Part shown: one piece after another, positions 16,799 through 64,000 of the stretch
Numbering within the stretch: position 1 is the first letter of the stretch
How the letters are laid out: every line of letters starts with the position of its first letter
Origin: Branchiostoma floridae
Taxonomy: Eukaryota > Chordata > Leptocardii > Amphioxiformes > Branchiostomatidae
DNA: 64,000 bases
Direction of reading: 5' to 3'
NCBI RefSeq assembly: GCF_000003815.2
Contig: NC_049995.1
Span: forward strand, 12,691,436-12,755,435
Notes under the pieces: model-generated
What the model was told of the DNA's origin: nothing
The model's database searches: none
Seen by the model: only the letters and a program-made list of their open reading frames with translations
Program-made: the position numbers and the translations under genes

Positions 16799-18556
16799 AT
16801 GGCGAGACCGACAATGAAATTATGGGGTTTTGTTCTCATGGTTCTTTTCTACATTGGGCTCGGCTGTTATATCCATTTCAGGCGGCCACCCTACTGGATT
16901 TTCAACAGGTAACTAGTATCTTCTTAAATATATCTGTAGACGTAGTGGCGACGTAGTAATTACGTCATGTTCAGAGCGAAGCCATTCTTGACTGACAATG
17001 CTTTTTTTAAGACATTCAGGTATAATTACTTCATGTATCATTAAGAAAGAAATATCAACTTTCCAAGACAAGTTTGATTGCCGCGGCGGCTAAAACCCCC
17101 TTGTGTAATGAGACAGTGGATTATCAAAACAATCACAGCATCGTCAACATGTATCTTCTTCATGAGGACTACATAATTATGTCATATTGTTCCTGAAAAA
17201 AATTTATCAGTTTGTTTTATTCTTCTGTAAACGTTTTGACGACCATCAGTCGTCTTCATCAGTACAAAATTATGAAGACGACAGATGGTCATCGAAACGT
17301 TTACTGAAGAATCAAAGAAGGTTGTAAAACGAAGAAGATTTTGTTCAAAGGAATATAAAATAATGTTTACTTCTTTTTTACTGCATGTCAGGAAGCTTAC
17401 AAGGGAAGGTGCCTGTGACGCCAAGCGAAACTTCATGTTCGTCAAAGTGCACAAGGCTGGAGGCACGACAGCCACCTGCATCTTCCAACGCTTCGGGTAC
17501 GAACACAACCTGACCTTCGTTCTGCCTGTCATCAAGACTGACATCGGTTGGCCCAACCTCTTGAGACAAGAAGACTTCATACCGTCGGCAGACGGTACTT
17601 ATAATGTTCTAGTCGACCACACGGTTTACAATAGGCAGTTGTTAGACCATCTCATGCCTCCTGACACTGTGTACATCTCTATCCTTAGGCAGCCACTGGC
17701 TCAACTTCGGTCTACGTTCAACTGGTATCACCTTGTTGACCACATGAATGGGTTGAACGGGTCGAAAGATCCTGTTGCGTCCTTCTTAAAAAGGCCGAAC
17801 AAATTTCACATCCCGTATGTCAAAGCAGATATCCGTACAAGAGTGCCATATACCCTCGAAAAGAATCTCATGGCGTATGACCTTGGCTTTCCTCTCGGAC
17901 TGTCTGACAGCCAATCGTCCATTGATGAGTATATCGAAACGCTGACCAGAGAAATTGACCTGGTTCTCATTTTAGAACATATGGACGAATCTCTTGTCTT
18001 GTTGAGGAGGATGATGTGTTGGACCTTAAAAGACATTCTTTATAACGTCGCACCCAAAAACCTGAACAAATATGAAAGGTCACCAATGAGCGCGGCCTTG
18101 CTGAATCAGCATCGCCAATGGAGCAATGTAGATTATCAGCTGTACGATCACTTTAACGCGACACTTTGGCAGAAGATACAAAGAGAAGGCGCCGATTTTC
18201 TACACGAAGTGCACCATTTTCGAAACGTGCTGAATCAAACGACTATCTTCTGCGCGAAAGCAATCACGAAAGTACCTGTATACAACAAAACAAACAATAA
18301 CATTGTTGGGCGGAAGGTTGGTTTAAATCCGACAGCTGGCAAACTTACAATTCCAAAGACAGCGTGGCATGAAAAATTTGACATAGATCCGACCTTCTGT
18401 CTAAAACTAAAAATGGAATGGCGTGACTGGGCATATGTTTTAAAAAAGAAGCACAGAATGCCACGGAACATATCTCCCGATATTAGAAGTGCTATTGAAT
18501 GGCCTGACACCAAAGTTCTGGATAAATCTCTAATGCGAAAAATTTTTCACGTTTGA
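16799..18556 (+). CDS. galactose 3-O-sulfotransferase family protein, copy A
   Basis: Two exons, 16799-16908 and 17392-18556, joined in phase 2 through an Arg codon, give 424 residues, the usual size for this Golgi family. Exon 1 encodes a short basic cytoplasmic end and one hydrophobic signal anchor at about 8-27, the type II topology of Golgi sulfotransferases. The 5'-phosphosulfate loop is FVKVHKAGGTT at about 53-63 and the 3'-phosphate region is YISILRQPLAQLRS at about 131-144. Also typical are NLTFVLP and EKNLMAYDLGFPLG. Several N-glycosylation sequons (NLT, NGS, NAT, NQT) lie in the lumenal part. Family members move sulfate from PAPS to the 3-OH of galactose on glycolipids or glycans; the acceptor cannot be read from sequence. 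The intron holds inverted hammerhead-like sequences. A second copy lies at 61908-63075. Confidence 0.88.
17206..17318. other. inverted pair of hammerhead-like motifs in Gal3ST intron
   Basis: The minus-strand copy (about 17223-17269) reads CTGATGA, one A, a 6-bp stem GACGAC/GTCGTC, AAAACGTT, then TACAGAA, which can pair with TTTTGTA before CTGATGA to form stem I of about seven pairs. This is a hammerhead layout except for A in place of the catalytic G12 and one extra A before stem II. The plus-strand copy (about 17268-17305) keeps GAAACGTT but has lost C3 and G5. The two arms are near-complementary, so the whole is a long hairpin. Confidence 0.5.
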
Positions 18557-19834: not shown

Positions 19835-19975
19835 AAATTGGCCAGTCAGACTCTTTTTATACAACCAATACTTTATTCTCACCGACGTTTTGGCGACCGT
19901 CTGTCACCTTCTTCAAGGCATTTCTGACTGGTTCACATTGTACTGCAGGACAGGTGTCGCTGCTCACATTTCAGA
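19835..19975 (-). other. hammerhead-like retroelement fragment, decayed
   Basis: On the minus strand, TTGAAGA, one A, the stem GGTGAC/GTCGCC and AAAACGTC (about 19881-19914) follow the CUGANGA...GAAAC hammerhead order, with C3 changed to U and G12 changed to A. The neighbouring TTCTGACTG...GCTGCT words match the fragment at 39421-39525. It provides an AATAAA (19871-19876 on the minus strand) that may serve XBP1 polyadenylation. Confidence 0.45.
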
Positions 19976-20005
19976 TGCGGTCACAAAACGTAAAAAGTAT
20001 ATTGA

Positions 20006-22085
20006 CTATGGCCACCAGGCGCTAGACGCACTAAACGCGGGGACTTTTGGGTTGAAGACCGGGTCGGAGGCCGTGATACCCTCGGTCTGCTCCCGGAGCT
20101 TGGTGAAGAAGACGTCGGCGTCCAGGTGCCCTAGAAGCCGGAGAAGGACGTCGCACTGAGCGTCAGGATCCATGCCACGAGGCTGGAGGTGAACCAGACC
20201 TGCCCCTGCTGCAGAGGTGCACGTAGTCTGAACGCTGCGGGTTCAGAGGACCTGGATCTCTCCATCCTAGTGGCATGGCCTTCAACTGCCGGCGACATCT
20301 CCCTTCGGCTGCTGTTTGTACCGGGCCTCGTCTCCTGTTGGCACCAGACCTGCCCCTGCTGCAGAGGTGCACGTAGTCTGAACGCTGCGGGTTCAGAGGA
20401 TCTGGGTATCTCCCTCCTGGTGGTGCGGCCTTCGGCTGTCGGCGACATCTTTCCCGTCTCCTGTTGGCTCATCTTCCCCTGCTGCAGAGGCGCACGATGT
20501 CTGAACACTGTGGCTTCACAGGACCTGGATCTCTCCCTCCGGATGGGACGGCCTTCGGCTGCCTGTGACATCTCCCTCGCCTGCTGCAGCTTTTCACACT
20601 GGACCTCGGACTGCTGAAGATCTAGAGGTGCATGTAGGCTGAACGCTGCGGGCTCAGAGGACCTGGGTCCCTCCCTCCGGGTGCTATGGCCTTCAGCTGC
20701 CGGCGACATCTCCCCCGCCTGCTCGGACAGACCGAGTCGCTTCTTAAGCTCGGCGATCTCCATCGTTAGGCTTGCGTTGTACAGTGCGGGTTCAGAGGAC
20801 CAGTTTCGCTCCCTCCAGACGGTACGGCATTCGGCTGTCGGCGACATCTCCCTCGCCTGTCGCTGCTTACACCGGACCTCGGACTGCTGAAGATCTGAAG
20901 TTGCACGTAGTCTGAACGCTGTCGGTTCAGAGAATCTGGATCCCTCCATCCTAGTGGTACGGCCTTCGGCTGCTGTCGGCAACGTCTCCCTCGTCTGCTG
21001 TGTGTACCGGACCCCGGACTGACCGAGCAGTTTCTTGAGCTCGGCGTTCTCCACCGTCAGGCTGTTGGACTCCTGTTCTAGGCTTGAATTCTGTTCTTGT
21101 AGAGCCTTGTTCTATAGGAAGGGAAAACGATTTGATTAGCATGTCTTAATAATGAAAGTTTATTTACAAGTTCATGCCCGGAGGCTAATTGAAACTACAT
21201 GGTGAAGACATACAAGTGGCAATGAACAGTGATAAACATCATTGGAAATAGAAGTTACTCGAATTCCAGCGTTAACTATTTCTAAAGGGTTTGGCCGGGG
21301 TTTAACTTCTTCTTTTTTTTAAAAAAAGGAGACGAAAAGCCCATTTTTTTACAGTTTTTGACAAAAAGGCTTTCTGTCCACCTGTGGATGTGAGTTGCTG
21401 TGGATGTGAGTTGGGGTATGTCTTTGTGGCTTCCCTAAACAAAGTGATTATTCCGGATTGGTTGAATGAACACTTAGAAATAAAATGTGTTTCGTCTTCT
21501 ACACTGCTTTTAAATTGCACATCACTTTCAGATGGGATGTTCAAATTCTGTCTTAAACTTTGAAGTGTTAGTTTGCCATTTCTTCACCGGTGATTTCAGA
21601 ATAACCAGAGAATGACTTTAATTGGATAAAAATGTCAAAGGTTAGAGGTAAAAGGGCACTTAGATATTATGAAGGCTTACCTGTTCTTCTAGTTTGGCTG
21701 CAAGAAATTCCAGTTCGTCCATTTTGGCCTTCTTTCTGTCCCTTGCTGTTTGCGCTGCCGCTCGGTTCTTCATTTTTCTACAAAAAAAAAGGAAAGAAAA
21801 TCCCCATCATTAGTTCAAATACATTTCTCACAATAGCTTTGTTGGATTTCTCAAAATCATTTTTTCTGCTACTAGCCCAATCGATGCTTTTCTGACCTAC
21901 ATCTACATCCTTGTCTGCATATGGAAGTCGTCAGACAACTTTTCTGACGCTCTCTGGATAATGTCTTTCACAGGAAGGTCTAAGGAAACAGTGTTGCCGC
22001 ACTCCAGAACCGACTCACGGAAGCTTAACTCTTAAACACTCACAAATCCTTTTGTTTGTAAATCAACATTGTAACAAAAGTACAA

Positions 22086-22138
<53 letters not shown>

Positions 22139-22534
22139 ACGACGAAAACAACACGGTAGATGCCTGGAGGCATGAGCAGACAACTTCTTGCCACCCAGTT
22201 TATATGACACAGCAGGAATGGACAAACAAGAAGAATCGTATTATCATTGTTTTTACTTTTTCACCAAAAAGGAAAAAGAAAAGAAAGTCACGTAGAAGAA
22301 CTTGGCAAGAGAGGGAGTAGCTACAGATTTTTTTTGTCAAGAAGCCTTGTGCCACTAAGACAATTATCTTAAGTGTCACTTCTGGTTGAATAGTCACCTT
22401 CTCATCGCCTTCTGCTCAGGTGTCAGGTGGTTGAGTCTTTTTCTCCTCCTTGGTTGTTCCGTCAGTCCTGATGAAGACGCCATGTTGGTGTGAAGTCCTG
22501 TCGCTGTCCCACAAGCGATGTTCATCGGCGCCAT
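20006..22534 (-). CDS. XBP1, unfolded-protein-response bZIP factor with repeated IRE1 target
   Basis: Three conventional exons on the minus strand: 22534-22398, 21777-21681 and 21111 onward. The basic region contains RRKMKNRAAAQTARDRKKAK, almost identical to vertebrate XBP1, followed by six perfect heptads (Leu at 68, 75, 82, 89, 96, 103). Unspliced mRNA encodes XBP1u, 404 residues, stop at 20131, ending in a hydrophobic segment with AWILTLSATSF like the HR2 region that tethers XBP1u mRNA to the ER. Removal of the last 26-base IRE1 intron (20234-20209) shifts the frame to XBP1s, about 437 residues, stop at 20006. Residues after the zipper form six in-frame repeats of 41-50 residues (S-S-E-P-A-A-F-R-L-R-A-P-L-Q-Q type), each derived from the IRE1 target. 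XBP1s activates ER chaperone and ERAD genes. The short spliced tail (about 67 residues) and the missing arrest peptide are unlike vertebrates. A further downstream exon cannot be excluded. Confidence 0.93.
20209..20234 (-). promoter_or_regulatory. IRE1-spliced 26-base intron, distal copy A
   Basis: On the mRNA the 5' hairpin is stem CUGAAC/GUUCAG, six perfect pairs, closing the seven-base loop CCGCAGC, cut as CCGCAG|C. The 3' hairpin is stem UGCACCU/AGGGGCA with one mismatch, closing loop CUGCAGC, cut as CUGCAG|C. The distance between cuts is exactly 26 bases, and the inside keeps ACTACGTGCACCTC as in vertebrate XBP1. Removal opens the XBP1s frame to 20006. Confidence 0.92.
20359..20384 (-). 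promoter_or_regulatory. IRE1-type 26-base intron, copy B
   Basis: Identical to copy A across both loops, both stems and the intron, exactly 150 bases upstream on the mRNA. Cutting out copy B alone shifts into a frame that stops inside the next repeat. Joining the B 5' site to the A 3' site removes 176 bases and yields the same downstream XBP1s frame as removing A alone. Confidence 0.88.
20478..20930 (-). promoter_or_regulatory. decayed IRE1 target copies C, D, F, E
   Basis: Copy C (about 20482-20507) keeps the 3' loop CUGCAGC, but its 5' loop is CCACAGU with a weakened stem. Copy D (5' site at 20645/20646) keeps a full 5' hairpin, CUGAGC/GUUCAG around CCGCAGC, but its 3' loop has become CUUCAGC in altered sequence. 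Copy F has lost both. Copy E, nearest the zipper, keeps the 5' stem, but the loop is CGACAGC and the 3' site is gone. Confidence 0.8.
22088..22134. repeat. GA microsatellite in XBP1 intron 1
   Basis: An almost perfect (GA)n run of about 45 bases between XBP1 exons 1 and 2. The Ser-Leu open frame on the minus strand is a product of the repeat. Confidence 0.95.
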
Positions 22535-22652
22535 CCTCAGTTCTCGGCGCCGACCATAGCGTACGCAACGCCCGGTGGTATATCTCGGACTCCTCTGGGT
22601 TTTAGGCGGTTGGCATCACAAACTTACTTGTCCAGGTAAGGTAGTATGAGAT

Positions 22653-22671
22653 CGTGTCGATCTATGATTGG
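22653..22671 (-). promoter_or_regulatory. near-ERSE, copy 1 (CCAAT-N9-ACACG)
   Basis: On the sense strand of XBP1: CCAAT, nine bases, ACACG, about 120 bases upstream of the ATG. The ERSE consensus bound by NF-Y with ATF6/XBP1 is CCAAT-N9-CCACG, so one base differs. Order, spacing and orientation match. Confidence 0.65.
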
Positions 22672-22814
22672 TCGTTGCTCTAGTTTGAATATCAAACATA
22701 CAGATCTGATTGGTCAGTGCCGAAGATGACGTAAGCGTGTTCTAAGGTGATACATCTCTGTCCTCCCTGGTAGTTGTGTACGAACCTACTTATCTGGGTA
22801 GAAGAGTATGAGAT

Positions 22815-22833
22815 CGTGTCGATATATGATTGG
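22815..22833 (-). promoter_or_regulatory. near-ERSE, copy 2
   Basis: CCAAT, nine bases, ACACG again, about 280 bases upstream of the ATG. The nine-base spacer differs from copy 1 while both halves are kept. Confidence 0.6.
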
Positions 22834-23017
22834 TCGTTGCTCTAGTTTGAGTAACAAACATACAAATCTGATCGGTCATTGCCGAAGATGACATAAGCGT
22901 GTTCTAAGGTGATACATCTCTGTCCTCCCTAGTAGTTGGTGACGAATCTACTTTTCTATGTAAGACCAAGGACGTTATATGAGATAATATTACGCCCTTG
23001 GTAAGACAGTATGAGAT

Positions 23018-23036
23018 CGTGTCGATCTGCGATTGG
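23018..23036 (-). promoter_or_regulatory. near-ERSE, copy 3
   Basis: CCAAT, nine bases, ACACG, about 485 bases upstream of the ATG, in the most diverged copy of the repeated block. Both halves and the nine-base spacing remain. Confidence 0.6.
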
Positions 23037-23115
23037 TCATTTCTAGTTTAAATATCAAACATACAGCTCTGATTGGTCAGTGCTGAAGATCACTAGAAGA
23101 TCACGAAAGAGAGTT

Positions 23116-25468
23116 CTAAAGTTATCGCATGCGCCATCAAGACTAATTATACGTTATGCTCTTCTGGTACGCAAAATAGCAGTTAGTCACTGGATATGAT
23201 TTTGGACAGGTGGCGTCCACTGTACTCTGACACTGAGCAAATCTGTTAAAAAGCATGTTTTATACATTAGCTGTGAATAGTTATGAAAATGAGATGAAGA
23301 CAATTTTAGATAGTTCTATAGGAAAGCAAAGTAGTACAAGTCCAAACAAGTCTGATTCAAATGAGCCAGTTAGCTCCTATTGTCTAATGTTGTCTCGCTC
23401 GGAAGGGTAAGGGTGGGATTCTACCTTGAATTTCCCTTATTATAGGATTACCTGTAACTCATCTTTCGAACCAGTCGGAGTTCAAGGTCTAGAATAAAAG
23501 GTACTGCATGCTACCTGAAACGTCTGACAGCCTTCCAAAATCATAAAAAGTTGCTTGTTACCTGGATATCTTATATTATAATTATTCTTAAACTTTCGTC
23601 GACGTGATCCACTTATTGGATTTCGCAGCAACAAGGCCAACTTTAGAGGTGTGTATAAAATAACCCAACATATTGATGGCAAACCAAGTTTAATATTGCA
23701 AAATAACGAGACGCCTTCATTGTTTTATTTTGATGTTTTGATGTCTTGATGGAATAGTCCTACAGATGGCAAAACTGTGTATGTTTAATACAATTATCAT
23801 GTAATTTCCATACATATTAAAAGCACAAATGACCATATGATATCACACTGACAATCCAGGAGCACTCCAGAGCTACGTGATACTTGAGAATGTCCCCTTT
23901 CCCTTTGTTAAAATCACCAAAGCATCATAGCATGAGGAAAACTTGTAGATAGCGGTTGTTTTTCCGCACTTGTAACTAGGAGTCATTTTCATCGGTATCG
24001 ATATTATCCTGAGTATAAGGCATACGAGTCCATCTTTGACCTCTCCTTTGTTTGACCTATGACCCTTCTATTCGACACCGGTACACCGCCAAATTTGTTC
24101 TCGTAACGTCTGGGCCTTTTGAAGACAAAAATCTACGCAAGAAACCGGTCAGAGCGAAAAAAGACTAGAGGTATGTTGAGGTCAGAAGTTTTGGATCATT
24201 TATTTTGGTAACAGACTGGAAAATATTGTGTTTGACGCATAATTGTGGAGTGTAAAATTTTGGGATATGTGAAGGGGGAGGGGGGCGAAACCAAACGTAC
24301 GCGAGGCCTACACTAGCTACAAGAGCTGTGTAACGATTGCCTAAATAAATTCTAGATACAGGTCCAGACCTGAACATGTAACCTTAGCTTTATCAACTAT
24401 CTGTAAGTTATAAATGTAGCCAACTTACTTTTATAGTTATGAATTCTCATTTTGTATGAGTATATTGTACATTTTCGTAATAATTTCTACAAAATCTTTT
24501 TGGAATTTACTTAGCTTAAGTCTTAAAAAATATTGTTCACTAGTGATTTAATTTGTTCAGGTACAAGTACACCAGTTGTTCAGGTCTGGACCTGGACCTA
24601 TATAATTTTGGAGGTAGAGGTACGGTACATCATCATCATCATCATCGGTCGACGTGATCAAATGTAGACATGTTCGCACATGTCTACACACGACAGGGTT
24701 ATACGGTACAGGTATTAGGGGTATTTAGATACACAGCCCTGCGCACTACCAGCATATCATATATCATGCAAAAGTAACCATTTTAGTATGGACTAGTATG
24801 CATGTGTTCTGAAATCATTTGGGTTGACGCATCATAATGCAATGTGAGAAAATTTAAATCAGTACCAAGCTTGATAGAAGAATTTTATTGCACTACAATT
24901 GTAACAGGTACTGTACATGTTGCACCTGTACGACTAAGTGCGGCAGCTGACGAGAGGGTGGAGAAGGAAGTTCACACCCCTCCTTCACCTTAAAAAGACA
25001 CGTGCAGGCCAGGCAGACAGGGTCACCTAACCCACTGTCTGCCTACCATTGTCTTCCGAGACAGACGGATGCCAACAGATGTACAATGTACATGTATATG
25101 TATGAAAGTTGAACTAATGTAGTGTTGTTAGAATCTAAGAACTAATTTAATCTAATCTAATTAAGTTATCATAAACAACAGACACTAAGACCTCTCAAAC
25201 CCTTTTTTTACTAGGCTTGGCACAGCAAAGACGGATTTCAAGCCTGCCTATTCAAAAAGCTGCTGTGATGGGATGAAGTGCCCAGCTAGCTCTTCAACTG
25301 AGGTATTGCATAAGGGTCTCCTACCAAAGTTTTCTCGGGCTGCCTAGGAAGGTATCCCACTGGAGTTACCCAAAATTGCCCAGGAAAGTATACCACCAGG
25401 ATTTCTGAGAGTGAGAAAGACAGTGTTACTTTTTATACAAGCCTGCGGACCTAGATTTCAAGGTAAAT
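23116..25468. other. intergenic between XBP1 and the zinc-finger gene
   Basis: No supported exon is seen. It holds an antisense interspersed repeat at about 24885-25100 (TTTATTGCACTACAATTGTA onward), GGACCTG-rich pieces near 24360 and 24580, and a short (CAT)n run near 24630-24647. The zinc-finger gene may have an untranslated or short coding 5' exon here, but none could be assigned. Confidence 0.5.
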
Positions 25469-28400
25469 ATGTTTCAGATACTAGTACTCAATACGAACAC
25501 GGAACCTCAAACTCTGGGAAAACTCCACACCTGCTGGTATTGTGAGTTCAGCACCTACAGCAGCTCGGAACTTTCTGAGCACGAGAAAACCCACCCAAAA
25601 GACAAACCCTTCAAGTGCAACCACTGCGACTTTTCTGCAAAATATAGGTCCACTTTGCGCCAGCATCTTCTCAGGCACACTGGTGAGAAACCCTTTATGT
25701 GTAAAGACTGTGGGTTCAGGACAGCTCAAAAGAGTCGCCTATCTGAGCACATGAGAACCCACACGGGTGAAAAACCTTACAAGTGTGACCAGTGTGACTA
25801 TTCTGCTGCCCTGAAATCTACTTTGGCCAAACATCGAACAAAGCACAATACCAAGAAGCCCTTTCTGTGTGATGAGTGTGGATTCAGGACAACTCATAAG
25901 GCTTTCTTAAAAGGCCATATGAGAAGTCATACAGCAGAGAGGCGCTTCAAGTGTGACCAGTGTGACTACGCTGCAGTGAAGCAGTCAAATCTGACTCGCC
26001 ATCTCGAAAAACATGCGACTGAGAAGTCCTACGTATGCGGGGAATGTGGGTTCAGTACAGCTCGCAAGGACAGCCTTATCAAACACTTGCCTGTCCACGC
26101 AGGACCAAGACCATACAAGTGTGACCAGTGTGAGTACGCGGCAACACGGAAACGCCATGTGAAGATCCATCTAGCAAGATATCATACAAGTGAGGAACTC
26201 CACTTAGAGGCAGATGATAAGTGTCCCGATGCTGATGATGAAAGCTCCTGTGATGAGTCCCCCACGGAAGTTTTCCAGAACTGGTCAGTAGGGTCTCCCT
26301 CAGTAGTTTTCCACGATAGCGAAGCTGGACCTACAAATGAAGTTCCGAAAAACTGCCAAAGTGGGTCTCCCAATGAAGTTCTTCCTAACTGCCCTACTGG
26401 ATCTGCAAATGAAGTTTCCCAGAACTGTCAAAATGGGTCTCCCTCTGAAGTTTTTCAACAGTGCCTAGAAGGGTCTCCTACTGGAGTTGTACAGAACAGC
26501 ACCAAAAGTTATACCACTGATGTTTCTGAGAGTCAGGAAGGCGGTGCTAGACAGCAGACAGCTGCACAAAGTTCCAATCAGTCCAGCACAACTAATAGCT
26601 CCGCACTTTCTAAACAAATTGAGGCACAGACAGTAGACAAGCCCTTCAAGTGTGACCACTGCAACTTTTCTGCGAGATATAGGTCCACTTTGAGACAACA
26701 TCTTGTCAGGCACACTGGAGAGAAACCCTTCATGTGTAAAGACTGTGGGTTCAGGACAGCTAATAAGTATCAGTTAACTAGGCATATAAGAATCCACACA
26801 GGTGAAAAACCTTACAAGTGTGACCAGTGTGACTACTCTGCTGCAGAGAAATCTACTTTGACTAAACATCAAACAAAACACAATACCGAGAAGCCCTTTC
26901 TGTGTAATGAATGTGCATACAGAACAACTCACAAAGCTTACCTAAGAGATCATATGAAAAGCCATTCAGCTGAGAAGCCCTTCAAGTGTGACCAGTGTGA
27001 CTTTGCAGCAGTGCGGAAGTCCAATCTGACACGACACCTTGCAAAACATGCGACTGAGAAACCCTTTGTTTGTGAGGACTGCGGTTTCAGAACGGCCCTC
27101 CATCATGTCCTAACCAAACATTTGTTGTGCCATGCAGAAAAGCAGTATAAGTGTGACCAGTGTGACTTCTCCACAGCACGTGAGTCTTCACTGAAGCTCC
27201 ATCGCGCTAAACATACCGGTGAGAAACCCTACAGGTGTGGGGAGTGCGGGTTCAGAACAGCCATAAAGAGCAGCCTAACACAACACTTGCTGCTCCATAC
27301 AGGACAAAAACCCTACAAGTGTAAACACTGTGACTTTTCCACAACACAGAAAGCCCATCTGAAGGCTCACCTCGCAAAACACCCCGGCGAGAAAGCATTC
27401 ATCTGTGAGGTATGTGGATACCGGACTGGTTTGAAGGATCAATTTTCTAGTCATATGCTGATCCACACAGGTGAAAAACCACACAAGTGTGACCAGTGTG
27501 AGTTTTCTGCAAGAAAGAAGTCCACTTTGCGTCTACATCGTGTGAAATACCATGGTGCCAGAGGTTACACGTGTAGCGAGTGTGGATACAGGGCAGCTAG
27601 AAAAGCTGTCTTCATCCGGCATATGAAGGTCCATACAGGGGAGAAACCGTACAATTGTGACCAGTGTGACTTTTCTACTGCACACCGACCCACTCTGAAG
27701 CGACATCAAGCAAAACACACTGGTGAGAAACCCTTTGCTTGTGTGGAATGTGGATTCAGGACAACTTGTAACAGTAGCTTATTGGCTCACATGAAAACCC
27801 ATTCAAGTGAAAAACCTTACAAGTGCGACCAATGTGACCATTCTACAGCACATAAATACGCTTTGAACCGACATTTGCTCACTCACACTGGTCAGAAACG
27901 GTACATGTGTGACCAGTGTGACTTCAGGACTGCCAAAAGGTATAACTTACTACGACACGTAACAATGCACACAGGGAAAAAGATTTACAAATGTAGCAAG
28001 TGCGACTTTTCTGCCGAGCAGAAATCTAGCGTGGACGAACATTATGTGATACACACTACTGGTGGGAAACCTTTCATGTGTGGCCAATGTGAATATAGGA
28101 CAGCTCGAAAGTCTGACTTAACCGAACATCTGAAAGTTCACGGAGGTGTGAGACCCTACAAACATACCCATGGCGAATTTTACACAATCGAGGAGTCGAC
28201 TTTGGACTATGACTTAGCTCTAAACACCGGTGAGAAACCCTACATGTGTGAGATGTGTGGGTACAAGACTGCTGGAATGACTGAGTTATCCCACCACATG
28301 AGAACCCACACAGGGGAAAATCCTTGCCAGTGTGACCAGTGCTACTCTTCTGCAACAGAGAAGTCGAGTTTGAATCACCATCATACAAAACACACTGGAG

Positions 28401-28807
28401 AGAATGGGTTAAGAACAGCTAAAAACTCTCAAGGATCAAATCATTTGAGAACGCACACAAGTGAAAAACCCTACAAGTGCAACCAGTGCGACTATTCTGC
28501 TCCACAAAAATCGAGCTTGGACAAACATCTAGCAAAACATGCCGAAGAGAATCTCCTTGTTTGTGTGGAGTGTGGGTACAGGACGTCTAACAAGACTAGC
28601 TTAGCCAATCACTTGAAAACCCACTCAGGGGAGAAACCTTACAAGTGTGACCAGTGTGACTATTCTGCAGCACAAAAAGGCACTTTGACGCGACATCTAC
28701 AAACTCACACTGGTCAGAAACGGTACATGTGTGATCGTTGTGACTTTAGGACTAACGCTAAGTTTAATCTATCCCGACACATGAAAACGCACACTGGAAA
28801 ATTGTGA
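25469..28807 (+). CDS. poly-C2H2 zinc-finger protein (1112 aa, about 32 intact fingers)
   Basis: One long exon. Eight C2H2 fingers (residues about 19-235) are followed by a low-complexity spacer (about 236-390), then 24 more intact fingers and two broken ones. Fingers follow C-x2-C-x12-H-x3-H with TGEKP-like linkers; the recurring form alternates YKCDQCDYSA and FMCKDCGFRTA fingers. Such arrays bind long DNA sites; the target cannot be deduced. There is no KRAB, SCAN or BTB domain, as expected outside tetrapods for KRAB. Finger 27 (about residue 895) has lost its Cys and His, and finger 30 lost its Cys pair by deletion. Fingers 2-6 and 9-13 are near copies, showing block duplication. The ATG overlaps an acceptor-like ATGTTTCAG, so the true start could lie in an upstream exon. 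Confidence 0.88.
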   Translation: MFQILVLNTNTEPQTLGKLHTCWYCEFSTYSSSELSEHEKTHPKDKPFKCNHCDFSAKYRSTLRQHLLRHTGEKPFMCKDCGFRTAQKSRLSEHMRTHTGEKPYKCDQCDYSAALKSTLAKHRTKHNTKKPFLCDECGFRTTHKAFLKGHMRSHTAERRFKCDQCDYAAVKQSNLTRHLEKHATEKSYVCGECGFSTARKDSLIKHLPVHAGPRPYKCDQCEYAATRKRHVKIHLARYHTSEELHLEADDKCPDADDESSCDESPTEVFQNWSVGSPSVVFHDSEAGPTNEVPKNCQSGSPNEVLPNCPTGSANEVSQNCQNGSPSEVFQQCLEGSPTGVVQNSTKSYTTDVSESQEGGARQQTAAQSSNQSSTTNSSALSKQIEAQTVDKPFKCDHCNFSARYRSTLRQHLVRHTGEKPFMCKDCGFRTANKYQLTRHIRIHTGEKPYKCDQCDYSAAEKSTLTKHQTKHNTEKPFLCNECAYRTTHKAYLRDHMKSHSAEKPFKCDQCDFAAVRKSNLTRHLAKHATEKPFVCEDCGFRTALHHVLTKHLLCHAEKQYKCDQCDFSTARESSLKLHRAKHTGEKPYRCGECGFRTAIKSSLTQHLLLHTGQKPYKCKHCDFSTTQKAHLKAHLAKHPGEKAFICEVCGYRTGLKDQFSSHMLIHTGEKPHKCDQCEFSARKKSTLRLHRVKYHGARGYTCSECGYRAARKAVFIRHMKVHTGEKPYNCDQCDFSTAHRPTLKRHQAKHTGEKPFACVECGFRTTCNSSLLAHMKTHSSEKPYKCDQCDHSTAHKYALNRHLLTHTGQKRYMCDQCDFRTAKRYNLLRHVTMHTGKKIYKCSKCDFSAEQKSSVDEHYVIHTTGGKPFMCGQCEYRTARKSDLTEHLKVHGGVRPYKHTHGEFYTIEESTLDYDLALNTGEKPYMCEMCGYKTAGMTELSHHMRTHTGENPCQCDQCYSSATEKSSLNHHHTKHTGENGLRTAKNSQGSNHLRTHTSEKPYKCNQCDYSAPQKSSLDKHLAKHAEENLLVCVECGYRTSNKTSLANHLKTHSGEKPYKCDQCDYSAAQKGTLTRHLQTHTGQKRYMCDRCDFRTNAKFNLSRHMKTHTGKL
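26258..26509 (+). repeat. 36-base coding minisatellite in the zinc-finger spacer
   Basis: Seven in-frame units of 12 residues of the form S-P-x-E-V-x-x-N-x-x-x-G separate finger 8 from finger 9. Units are diverged, with P-T-N-E-V and S-A-N-E-V variants. The spacer probably arose by unit duplication and splits the array into two blocks. Confidence 0.8.
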
Positions 28808-59208: not shown

Positions 59209-59466
59209 TAGCCTCCATAGCAGGCTCTCTATGGGCTTTTTTGGCACTTTTGCTGGCCATTTCTTTTTGTACTGGGTCGCAGAGTGCTGGCCTCTCTCAT
59301 AGCCGCCCATTTTAGAAATCTAAAATGGGCGGCTACGAGAGNNNNNNNNNNNNNNNNNNNNNNNNNNNNNNNNNNNNNNNNNNNNNNNNNNNNNNNNNNN
59401 NNNNNNNNNNNNNNNNNNNNNNNNNNNNNNNNNNNNNNNNNCCCATAGAGAGCCTGCTATGGGGGC
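59209..59466. mobile_element. palindromic element broken by a 100-N gap
   Basis: CCATAGCAGGCTCTCTATGGG at the left and CCCATAGAGAGCCTGCTATGG at the right are inverted, flanked by direct repeats TAGGGTAGATG (59198-59208 and 59467-59477) that look like a target duplication. Inside, CATAGCCGCCCATTTT and AAAATGGGCGGCTA form a second hairpin just before the N run (59342-59441). Confidence 0.75.
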
Positions 59467-61907: not shown

Positions 61908-63075
61908 CTAATCAACGTGAAAAATCTGTAGCAGTAGAGATTTATCCAGAACTTTGGTGTTTGTCCATGAGATGGCCCTTCTGACACCGGAAGATAAATT
62001 TTGAGGCATTTTGTGCTTCTTTTTTAAAACATGCGACCAATCGTGCCACTCCATTTTTAGTTTGATACACAGAGTCGGGTCTATGTCAAATTCTTCATGC
62101 CACGCCGTCTTTGGAATGGTCAGTTTGCCAGCTTTCAAATCCAACTTAATTGTCCACCTAACAACTTTTTTGTGTTTTTTGTCATAAACGGGTACTTTCA
62201 CCATTGCTTTGGAACAAAAGATAGTCGTTTGTTTCAGCACGTTTTGAAAATGGTGCACTTCGTGTGGAAAATCGGCGCCTTCTTTTTGTATCTTTTGCCA
62301 AAGTGTAGCTTTAAAGTGATCGTACAGCTGATAATCTACATTGCTCCATCGGCGATGCTGATTCAGCAAGGCCGCGCTCATTGGTGTTTTCTTATATTTC
62401 TTAAGGTTTTTGGGTGCGACGTTATAAAGAATGTCTTTTAAGGTCCAACACATCCTCCTCCTCAGCAAGACAAGAGATTCGTCCATATGTTCTAAAATGA
62501 GAACCAGGTCAATTTCTCTGGACAGCGTTTCGATAAACTCATCAATGGACGATTGGCTGTCAGACAGTCCAAGAGGAAAGCCAAGGTCATACGCCATGAA
62601 ATTCTTTTCAAGGGTAAATGGCATATATCTTGTATGGCTATCTGCTTTGACGTATGGGACGTGAAATTTGTTTGGACTTTTTATGAAGGACGCTACCGGA
62701 TCTGAACGGCCCAAACCTTTTATTTTCTTAGCAAGGCCATACCAGTTGAACACAGACCGAAGATGAGAAAGTGGCTGCCTAAGGATAGAGATGTACACAG
62801 TGTCAGTGGGCATGAGATGGTCCAACAACTGCCTATTGTAAACCGTGTGGTCGACTAGAACGTTATAAGTACCGTCTGCAGACGGTATGAAGTCTTCTTG
62901 TCTCAAGAAGTTGGGCCAACCGACGTCACTCTTGATGACAGGCAGAACGAAGGTCAGGTTGTGTTCGTAACCGAAGCGTTGGAAGATGCAGGTGGCTGTC
63001 GTGCCCCCAGCCTTGTGCACTTTAACGAACATGAAGTTTCGCTTGGCTTCACAGGCGCCCTCACTTGTAAACGTC
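61908..63075 (-). CDS. galactose 3-O-sulfotransferase family protein, copy B (exon 2 only)
   Basis: The second exon starts after the acceptor TATGACAG in the same phase as copy A and encodes 388 residues to the stop. It has the same PAPS-binding elements: FVKVHKAGGTT, YISILRQPLSHLRS and EKNFMAYDLGFPLG. The two proteins are very similar, roughly 85 percent by eye, with clustered changes after FHVPYVKAD and in the C-terminal 70 residues. No exon 1 encoding the signal anchor is visible upstream to the end of the window; it may lie beyond 64000 or in the gap at 63320-63419. The gene is inverted relative to copy A and 43 kb away. Without exon 1 the reading frame lacks its Golgi anchor, so this is a partial model and not evidence of a pseudogene, since the frame is intact. 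Confidence 0.82.
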
Positions 63076-64000
63076 CTGTCATACAGCAAAGTAAATGTTT
63101 CTATTTGTTATGTGTTGATATATCATTTTCGAAAATCTGAAGACTATGGTTGCACACACTACGTTTATGAAGGTTGCATAATCCTAGTGAGCCATATTCA
63201 AACAAGGACTACATAACGTTCTTGATTCAAATAATCTCCATATAATACCGGTGGCATAAGATAGTATCAAAGCTGGCCAAGGAGTATAGCCTGGATAACT
63301 CCCTTTGGTCGGCTATACTNNNNNNNNNNNNNNNNNNNNNNNNNNNNNNNNNNNNNNNNNNNNNNNNNNNNNNNNNNNNNNNNNNNNNNNNNNNNNNNNN
63401 NNNNNNNNNNNNNNNNNNNTACTATCCTATGGCACCGGGGTAAGTCTGACTGGAGATTAATATTCAATCTCTACAACTGGACGCTCTTCTTCAGCTTCAC
63501 TTAAATGACCTGGCAGAACAATTCATTACGAGTATATCTAACTAGAATGGTTCAACATATATTAATTATGAGGATCGTATGTAAATTTCACTCTTATGCA
63601 AATCATGTCTAGATGGTTCACCACTTTAACTTAACCCTATCCAGATGGGGGGGGGGGGGGTAAAAGTTTCTGCGCCAACTTTGACGTCCTACAGCTCCCA
63701 AACGGCTCGTGCTAGAACAATCAAACTTAGTGATTTTTTTTAAATTTTTGGCAACAATTTAAAAGGACTTGGGTAAGTTTATAATTTTTCGTGTTGCCAT
63801 GGCAACGGGTTTCTGAAAGGCAAATTTTACGAAAATCACTAATTTTGGTTTAAACAACGGGATTTTAAGATTTTCTTGCTAAACTAAACTTCTTTTCATA
63901 TATCTTTAATATCGAACACATCTTAGTTTAACATTTATAATAAAATATTCATAGATTACTAGTATGCTAATGAGATGACGTAATTGGTCAAAATCCAAGA
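63076..64000. other. right edge: palindromic element with gap, poly-G run
   Basis: 63228-63462 is a palindromic element (TAATCTCCATATAATACCGG to GGTAAGTCTGACTGGAGATTA) whose centre is the 100-N gap 63320-63419. A run of about 14 G lies near 63647-63660. No exon is recognised. Confidence 0.6.

What the first reader, a model, noticed from the sequence alone, without database searches (positions are those of the whole stretch)
20161..20935. XBP1 carries a six-copy array of its IRE1 splice target
Seen: the sense strand of this XBP1 repeats the IRE1 target region six times, all in frame. Two copies (20209-20234 and 20359-20384) keep both seven-base loops (CCGCAGC, CUGCAGC), the supporting stems and an exact 26-base interval. 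Known: IRE1 removes one 26-base intron from metazoan XBP1 mRNA, and I know of no XBP1 with more than one competent target. Inference: the copy number could raise IRE1 capture, give graded output or produce several XBP1s isoforms.
Basis: partly seen in the sequence, partly recalled or inferred. Interest (0 to 1): 0.95.

Follow-up and report, generated by a model that had tools for sequence, protein, structure and literature searches.

The report
XBP1 duplicate with two IRE1 introns
A second, shortened copy of the stress-response gene XBP1 carries six tandem repeats of its stress-splicing region, of which two look complete, while the normal single-site XBP1 sits on another chromosome; this could be a built-in brake on the stress response or a duplicate gene drifting apart.

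Summary
The array is real, but the reading changes. On the minus strand of 20193-20987 a unit of about 135 bp occurs six times, all in frame. Only two copies (c5, c6) are complete Hac1/Xbp1 introns: they are the only Rfam RF04247 hits in the window, both above the curated cut-off. One copy keeps only the 5' hairpin, one only the 3' hairpin, two keep no full site. The finding could not see that the genome holds a second, canonical XBP1 on contig C11, with one IRE1 intron and a full activation domain. The window gene is its paralogue: its activation domain is cut short where an interspersed repeat begins, and its XBP1u tail ends just after the HR2-like segment. Splicing at the last copy gives a bZIP protein with a short activation domain; splicing at the upstream copy, alone or with the last, stops before it; joining the upstream 5' site to the last 3' site (176 nt) restores it. 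Both complete elements stayed nearly unchanged while their flanks diverged, through selection or gene conversion. Best reading: an IRE1-released, activation-poor XBP1 that tempers the main one; close rival: a decaying duplicate. Expression and cleavage are untested. New variant of a known kind.

The parts
22398..22534 (-). XBP1 paralogue exon 1 (from the ATG at 22534; basic region start)
   Evidence: ORF and donor AAG|GTGACT; matches C11 exon 1
21681..21777 (-). exon 2 (basic region, first zipper heptads)
   Evidence: acceptor TTTTGTAG, donor CAG|GTAAGC; Pfam bZIP
20006..21111 (-). exon 3: zipper end, six-unit array, HR2-like segment, short activation domain; XBP1u stop at 20131-20133, XBP1s stop at 20006-20008
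   Evidence: 326-aa open frame; products
20877..20987 (-). array copy c1: 5' stem kept but loop off consensus (CGACAGC), 3' hairpin lost
20742..20852 (-). array copy c2: element lost, replaced by zipper-like sequence
20604..20714 (-). array copy c3: 5' hairpin intact (CCGCAGC), 3' hairpin lost
20466..20576 (-). array copy c4: 3' hairpin kept (CTGCAGC), 5' loop broken (CCACAGT)
20339..20411 (-). array copy c5: complete Hac1/Xbp1 intron element; intron 20387-20362
   Evidence: RF04247 43.8 bits, cut-off 41
20189..20260 (-). array copy c6: complete element at the ancestral position; intron 20237-20212
   Evidence: RF04247 41.2 bits, cut-off 41; downstream collinear with C11
20131..20200 (-). HR2-like hydrophobic segment of XBP1u (approximate start), ended by a stop within four residues
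20006..20211 (-). short activation-domain frame read after c6 splicing (DVLLRLLGHLDADVFF...)
19848..20000 (-). interspersed repeat abutting the truncated 3' end; holds AATAAA (19872-19877 on +)
   Evidence: 46 other matches in the genome at 84-95% identity; alignment with 7 of them; AATAAA

Best explanation
The window gene is a diverged XBP1 paralogue whose IRE1-target region expanded into six in-frame units; the canonical XBP1 on contig C11 has one. Two units remain complete IRE1 introns. Under ER stress IRE1 would cut either or both and RtcB would rejoin the ends. Any such event takes translation out of the XBP1u frame with its HR2-like segment and releases a bZIP protein with a short activation domain (c6, or c5-to-c6) or none (c5). 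Because the C-terminal part of the activation domain is missing in every case, the gene most likely makes a stress-induced weak or passive XBP1 that competes with full XBP1s from C11. Shown by sequence: paralogy, the two complete elements, reading frames, truncated domain, low divergence of both elements. Inferred: expression, cleavage, competition.
For: RF04247 over its cut-off at three places in the 513-Mb genome: C11 once, the window gene twice (75 of 17,078 first-look candidates scored). Structure: 17 of 18 pairs kept in C11, c5 and c6, against 9-12 of 18 in c1-c4; the pair list was drawn up from the complete elements, which favours them. Between C11 and c5/c6 the closing pair of the 5' hairpin changes on both sides (U-A to C-G), and the outer stem differs only by pair-keeping changes. 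Copy-specific changes against C11: c5 6/48 in flank and 1/63 in element (p 0.041); c6 6/48 and 0/63 (p 0.005); pooled p 2.3e-4. dN/dS of the bZIP region, C11 against window gene, 0.43 (bootstrap 0.23-0.83). Machinery present: IRE1 kinase-RNase and RtcB exons. The activation-domain C-terminus was not found in the window (tblastn best E 2.4). A Ciona Xbp1 with bZIP but no activation domain is called a passive repressor (PMC8803312, passages).
Against: No transcript data. The XBP1u frame ends four residues after the HR2-like segment (56 in C11), probably too soon for it to leave the ribosome (exit-tunnel length recalled), so delivery to IRE1 may be poor. Gene conversion of c5 by c6 explains the 58-nt identity without function for c5. 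None of the six 71-nt pieces folds better than its shuffles (z 0.12 to 2.23), and in local folding the outer stem of c5 is not predicted (p 0.01, against 0.66 in c6 and 0.99 in C11). dN/dS averages both lineages, so C11 could carry most of the constraint; for the short activation domain the interval includes 1 (0.20-1.40).
Confidence: 0.5

Rival explanations
1. A duplicate XBP1 in decay. The array is neutral growth of a disordered linker; c5 is intact only because it was recently overwritten by c6 through gene conversion or a short duplication. No function of the second site.
For: Activation domain and XBP1u tail truncated beside an interspersed repeat. c5/c6 flank differences are 8 nonsynonymous to 2 synonymous codons, so the linker protein is not conserved. 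58 of 58 identical bases in one block is what conversion leaves. Four of six elements have decayed wholly or in part.
Against: bZIP dN/dS 0.43, upper bound 0.83; 326-aa frame and both donors and acceptors intact; the only c5-c6 difference from -15 to +47 of the element keeps its base pair (A-U against G-U).
Confidence: 0.33
2. One reading: copy number raises IRE1 capture and yields several active XBP1s isoforms or graded output.
For: Two complete sites plus two half sites in frame. A c5-to-c6 junction of 176 nt keeps the frame, and HAC1 introns of 19 to 848 nt are known (PMC6222058, passages).
Against: c5 splicing gives a 345-residue truncated product even if c6 is also spliced. All six 5' stems carry a UGA in the spliced frame. 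The activation domain is short.
Confidence: 0.1
3. The extra hairpins act as decay sites: IRE1 cuts single hairpins and the mRNA is degraded (RIDD-like).
For: c3 keeps a lone 5' hairpin and c4 a lone 3' hairpin with consensus loops; single CNGCAGN stem-loops are cut in RIDD targets (PMC8674358, passages).
Against: Half sites also arise by plain decay; nothing here shows cleavage.
Confidence: 0.05
4. Assembly artefact: the array is a misjoin.
For: No reads were available to check.
Against: Units differ by about a quarter in their flanks and by spacing; the gene sits in a contig of 19.1 Mb, and the window's two N runs lie at 59342 and 63320, far from it.
Confidence: 0.02

Closest known systems
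Canonical metazoan XBP1, here the C11 gene of the same genome (L001)
   Same: Three exons with the same phases, bZIP, CCGCAGC/CTGCAGC loops giving a 26-nt intron, HR2-like segment, first part of the activation domain
   Different: C11 has one element, a longer XBP1u tail and the full activation domain ending WEETFTTELFPQLISV; the window gene has six units (two complete) and a truncated domain
Rfam RF04247, non-canonical Hac1/Xbp1 intron
   Same: c5 and c6 both match over the full model above the cut-off
   Different: Two complete elements 150 nt apart in one exon. I saw no such case in the listings of my searches, which are capped and open-access only
HAC1 long introns (Candida parapsilosis, 626 nt)
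   Same: Non-canonical introns far longer than 26 nt are spliced (PMC6222058, passages), so a 176-nt composite is conceivable
   Different: There two hairpins bound one intron
bZIP-only Xbp1 (Ciona Xbp1-DBD construct)
   Same: bZIP without activation domain, as predicted for c5 splicing
   Different: An experimental construct (PMC8803312, passages), not a natural paralogue

Membership tests
Hac1/Xbp1 non-canonical intron (RF04247) | Covariance-model score over the curated cut-off | tested here: met
   c5 43.8 and c6 41.2 bits against 41; c1-c4 gave no hit at E up to 1
Hac1/Xbp1 non-canonical intron (RF04247) | Two 7-nt CNG|CAGN loops on stems, 26 nt apart | tested here: met
   c5 and c6 only; c3 and c4 keep one loop each; consensus from PMC8674358
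Hac1/Xbp1 non-canonical intron (RF04247) | Thermodynamic folding above background | tested here: inconclusive
   5' hairpin predicted with p 0.99 (c5), 0.97 (c6), 0.92 (C11); 3' hairpin only 0.25, 0.18, 0.16; outer stem 0.01, 0.66, 0.99; no 71-nt piece beats its shuffles
Hac1/Xbp1 non-canonical intron (RF04247) | Cleaved by IRE1 and joined by RtcB under ER stress | not testable with these tools
   Only the presence of IRE1 and RtcB genes was shown
XBP1 (metazoan, canonical) | bZIP domain | tested here: met
   PF07716 E 8.3e-11
XBP1 (metazoan, canonical) | HR2-like segment in the unspliced frame after the intron | tested here: met
   FTSSLVAWILTLSATS against ITSSLVAWILTLSATS in C11; its function was not tested
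XBP1 (metazoan, canonical) | XBP1u tail beyond HR2 | tested here: not met
   4 residues follow the segment (FSGF, stop) against 56 in C11
XBP1 (metazoan, canonical) | Full activation domain in the spliced frame, ending ELFPQLISV-like | tested here: not met
   Frame ends at 20006; tblastn of the C11 domain against the window has best E 2.4
XBP1 (metazoan, canonical) | Single IRE1 intron | tested here: not met
   Two complete elements

The most novel reading that the evidence does not exclude
The two tandem introns form a self-limiting switch. Weak IRE1 activity splices mostly one site and gives some product with the short activation domain; strong activity splices both, and any upstream splice ends translation at or before a UGA built into the next element's own 5' stem, so that output falls and a passive bZIP accumulates. 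The c5-to-c6 composite intron would be the escape route. This would be a dose-dependent brake written into the target RNA.
Probability: 0.12. Interest if true: 0.85.

Novelty: new variant of a known kind. Interest (0 to 1): 0.6.

Why it matters
XBP1 is the textbook case of one IRE1 intron per mRNA. A natural gene with two intact-looking targets in tandem lets one ask which hairpins IRE1 and RtcB pair, whether a distant 5' hairpin can be joined to another copy's 3' hairpin, and whether an animal keeps a dedicated activation-poor XBP1 beside the normal one. The normal single-site copy in the same genome is a built-in control.

Tried and rejected
Hidden GT-AG introns in the array: the best donors in exon 3 match 6 of 9 consensus positions (both real donors 8 of 9), so removal of the array by ordinary splicing is unlikely but not excluded; one acceptor-like site at 20131 has 12 of 14 pyrimidines, as many as the real acceptor of exon 3. 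Composite fold: over 251 nt the model prefers an outer stem between c5 and c6 (p 0.905; -99.6 kcal/mol against -87.5 with local hairpins forced), but it partly buries the 3' loops and the energy is not unusual (z -1.41, 21 of 200 shuffles as good), so I do not rely on it. Classical ER-stress elements upstream: none matched the patterns tried, in either gene. Missing activation domain further downstream: not found in the window. Third XBP1 in the genome: none in the protein search. Species: the GFP family, recalled as typical of lancelets, gave no match, and the tool warns that this does not show absence; a paper search for the assembly gave only a listing that settles nothing.

Limits of counts: the copy-specific change counts were made for c1, c3, c4, c5 and c6 (5 of 6 copies); c2 was left out because its element is replaced. 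The comparison is ungapped; c1 and c3 carry insertions, which inflates their counts (c1 8/48 and 17/63; c3 2/48 and 13/63; c4 4/48 and 9/63) and the p of 9e-5 built on them. I saw no indels between c5, c6 and C11 in the stretch used.

Full report
WHAT IS THERE. The minus strand of 22534-20006 encodes an XBP1-type gene in three exons: 22534-22398, 21777-21681 and 21111-20006. From the ATG at 22534 the unspliced frame gives 404 residues; Pfam finds a bZIP at 39-92 (E 8.3e-11). After the zipper, exon 3 holds six copies of a unit that encodes EMSPxAEGxxTRREGxRSSEPAAFRLRAPLQQGQ-like sequence. The 5'-loop starts of c1 to c6 are at 20924, 20789, 20651, 20513, 20390 and 20240; all five spacings are multiples of 3.

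HOW MANY TARGETS WORK ON PAPER. Searching the whole window against all 4227 Rfam families, RF04247 (Hac1/Xbp1 intron) is hit twice at E up to 1, at c5 and c6, with 43.8 and 41.2 bits against a cut-off of 41 (c1 to c4 also gave nothing in the narrower search). Of 18 base pairs that I listed from the complete element, C11, c5 and c6 each keep 17 (the same A-G mismatch in all three), c4 12, c3 11, c1 10, c2 9. c3 keeps the 5' loop and stem, c4 the 3' loop and stem, c1 a 5' stem with an off-consensus loop. So: two complete, two half, two without a usable site.

THE OTHER XBP1. The whole genome could be searched (513,431,437 bases, 431 contigs). RF04247 has three hits over the cut-off: two in this gene and one on contig C11, with the best score, 45.2 bits (75 of 17,078 first-look candidates were scored). 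A protein search with the bZIP region finds only these two genes (6 exon matches, three in each). The C11 gene has the same three exons and phases, one 26-nt intron, a 224-residue unspliced and a 330-residue spliced protein, the latter ending WEETFTTELFPQLISV. These lengths are counted from the ATG of MNIA; an in-frame ATG also lies further up, at L001:5. It is the canonical gene; the window gene is a DNA-level duplicate, since stretches beyond the exons and of the upstream region also align. dS in the bZIP region is 0.32 and dN/dS 0.43, bootstrap 0.23-0.83. With that divergence and on different contigs they are not alleles.

WHAT THE PARALOGUE LOST. Clear homology to C11 ends near 20049, the spliced frame stops at 20006-20008, and an interspersed repeat begins at about 20000. 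That repeat has 46 further matches at 84-95% identity in the genome (40 of 1587 candidates scored), and AATAAA lies inside it. The rest of the activation domain was not found in the window (best tblastn E 2.4). The unspliced frame stops four residues after the HR2-like segment, whereas C11 runs on for 56. In mammals HR2, aided by translational pausing, brings the mRNA to the ER (PMC9217131, passages), so this gene may reach IRE1 less well; that is inference.

WHAT SPLICING WOULD GIVE. c6 alone: 437 residues with the short activation domain. c5 alone, or c5 and c6 each: 345 residues, stopping in the spliced frame before c6. c5 5' site to c6 3' site: 176 nt removed, 387 residues with the short domain. 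Of six junctions tried, three reach the short domain, all through the c6 3' site. All six copies carry UGA in the spliced frame within their own 5' stem, so that a product spliced upstream and read on through the next unit ends at or before it. Tandem copies are therefore not equivalent.

CONSTRAINT OR CONVERSION. c5 and c6 are identical over 58 of 58 bases around the element, but only 40 of 53 in the flank just upstream. With C11 as outgroup, c5-specific changes are 6 of 48 in the flank and 1 of 63 in the element (p 0.041); c6-specific 6 of 48 and 0 of 63 (p 0.005); pooled p 2.3e-4. The one change in the c5 element, in the outer stem, keeps pairing. In c1, c3 and c4 together the element has changed at least as much as the flank (39 of 189 against 14 of 144; inflated by insertions, see limits; c2 not counted). 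C11 and the window elements differ at the closing pair of the 5' hairpin by a two-sided change, U-A to C-G. Selection on both sites, or selection on c6 plus conversion of c5, both fit; the data do not separate them.

AGAINST. Single-strand folding does not set the elements apart from shuffles. The 3' hairpin is predicted weakly in all three complete elements, C11 included, and the outer stem of c5 is not predicted locally (p 0.01; c6 0.66, C11 0.99). The composite fold is not unusual. No transcripts, no reads and no second lancelet genome were available.

KNOWN OR NOT. Ten searches of an open-access library were made; nine bore on this question. In the listed titles and abstract beginnings I saw nothing about a lancelet XBP1 or an XBP1 with two IRE1 introns. 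The lists were capped in part (20 of 103, 10 of 22, 15 of 35), and subscription papers are not covered. PMC4891664 was searched for six terms with no match. I therefore call it a new variant of a known kind.

Noticed in passing
22643-23080: The region upstream of the gene holds a 162-bp tandem repeat at 22643-22957 (1.9 copies, 92% matches) with a related third piece, seen by eye, near 23010-23080; CCAAT boxes on the gene strand at 23076, 23036, 22833, 22713 and 22671, and one ACGTCA at 22732. Part aligns with the C11 upstream region.
   Followed up: partly
17276-18553 and 61911-63107: Two related galactose-3-O-sulfotransferase genes on opposite strands (PF06990).
   Followed up: no
25415-28804: A 1130-residue open frame with many C2H2 zinc fingers.
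   Followed up: no
17212-17319: Both strands match the MIR6020 model well below its cut-off (46.9 and 44 against 118 bits), as a long inverted repeat would; possibly a small transposable element.
   Followed up: no
19848-20000: Interspersed repeat that also occurs as nearby inverted pairs elsewhere (for example two places on C3 about 1.5 kb apart), which suggests terminal inverted repeats of a DNA element.
   Followed up: partly
L012:1435-2883: A second kinase plus KEN-type RNase gene on contig C5, besides IRE1 on C6; RNase L-like or IRE1-like, not resolved.
   Followed up: no
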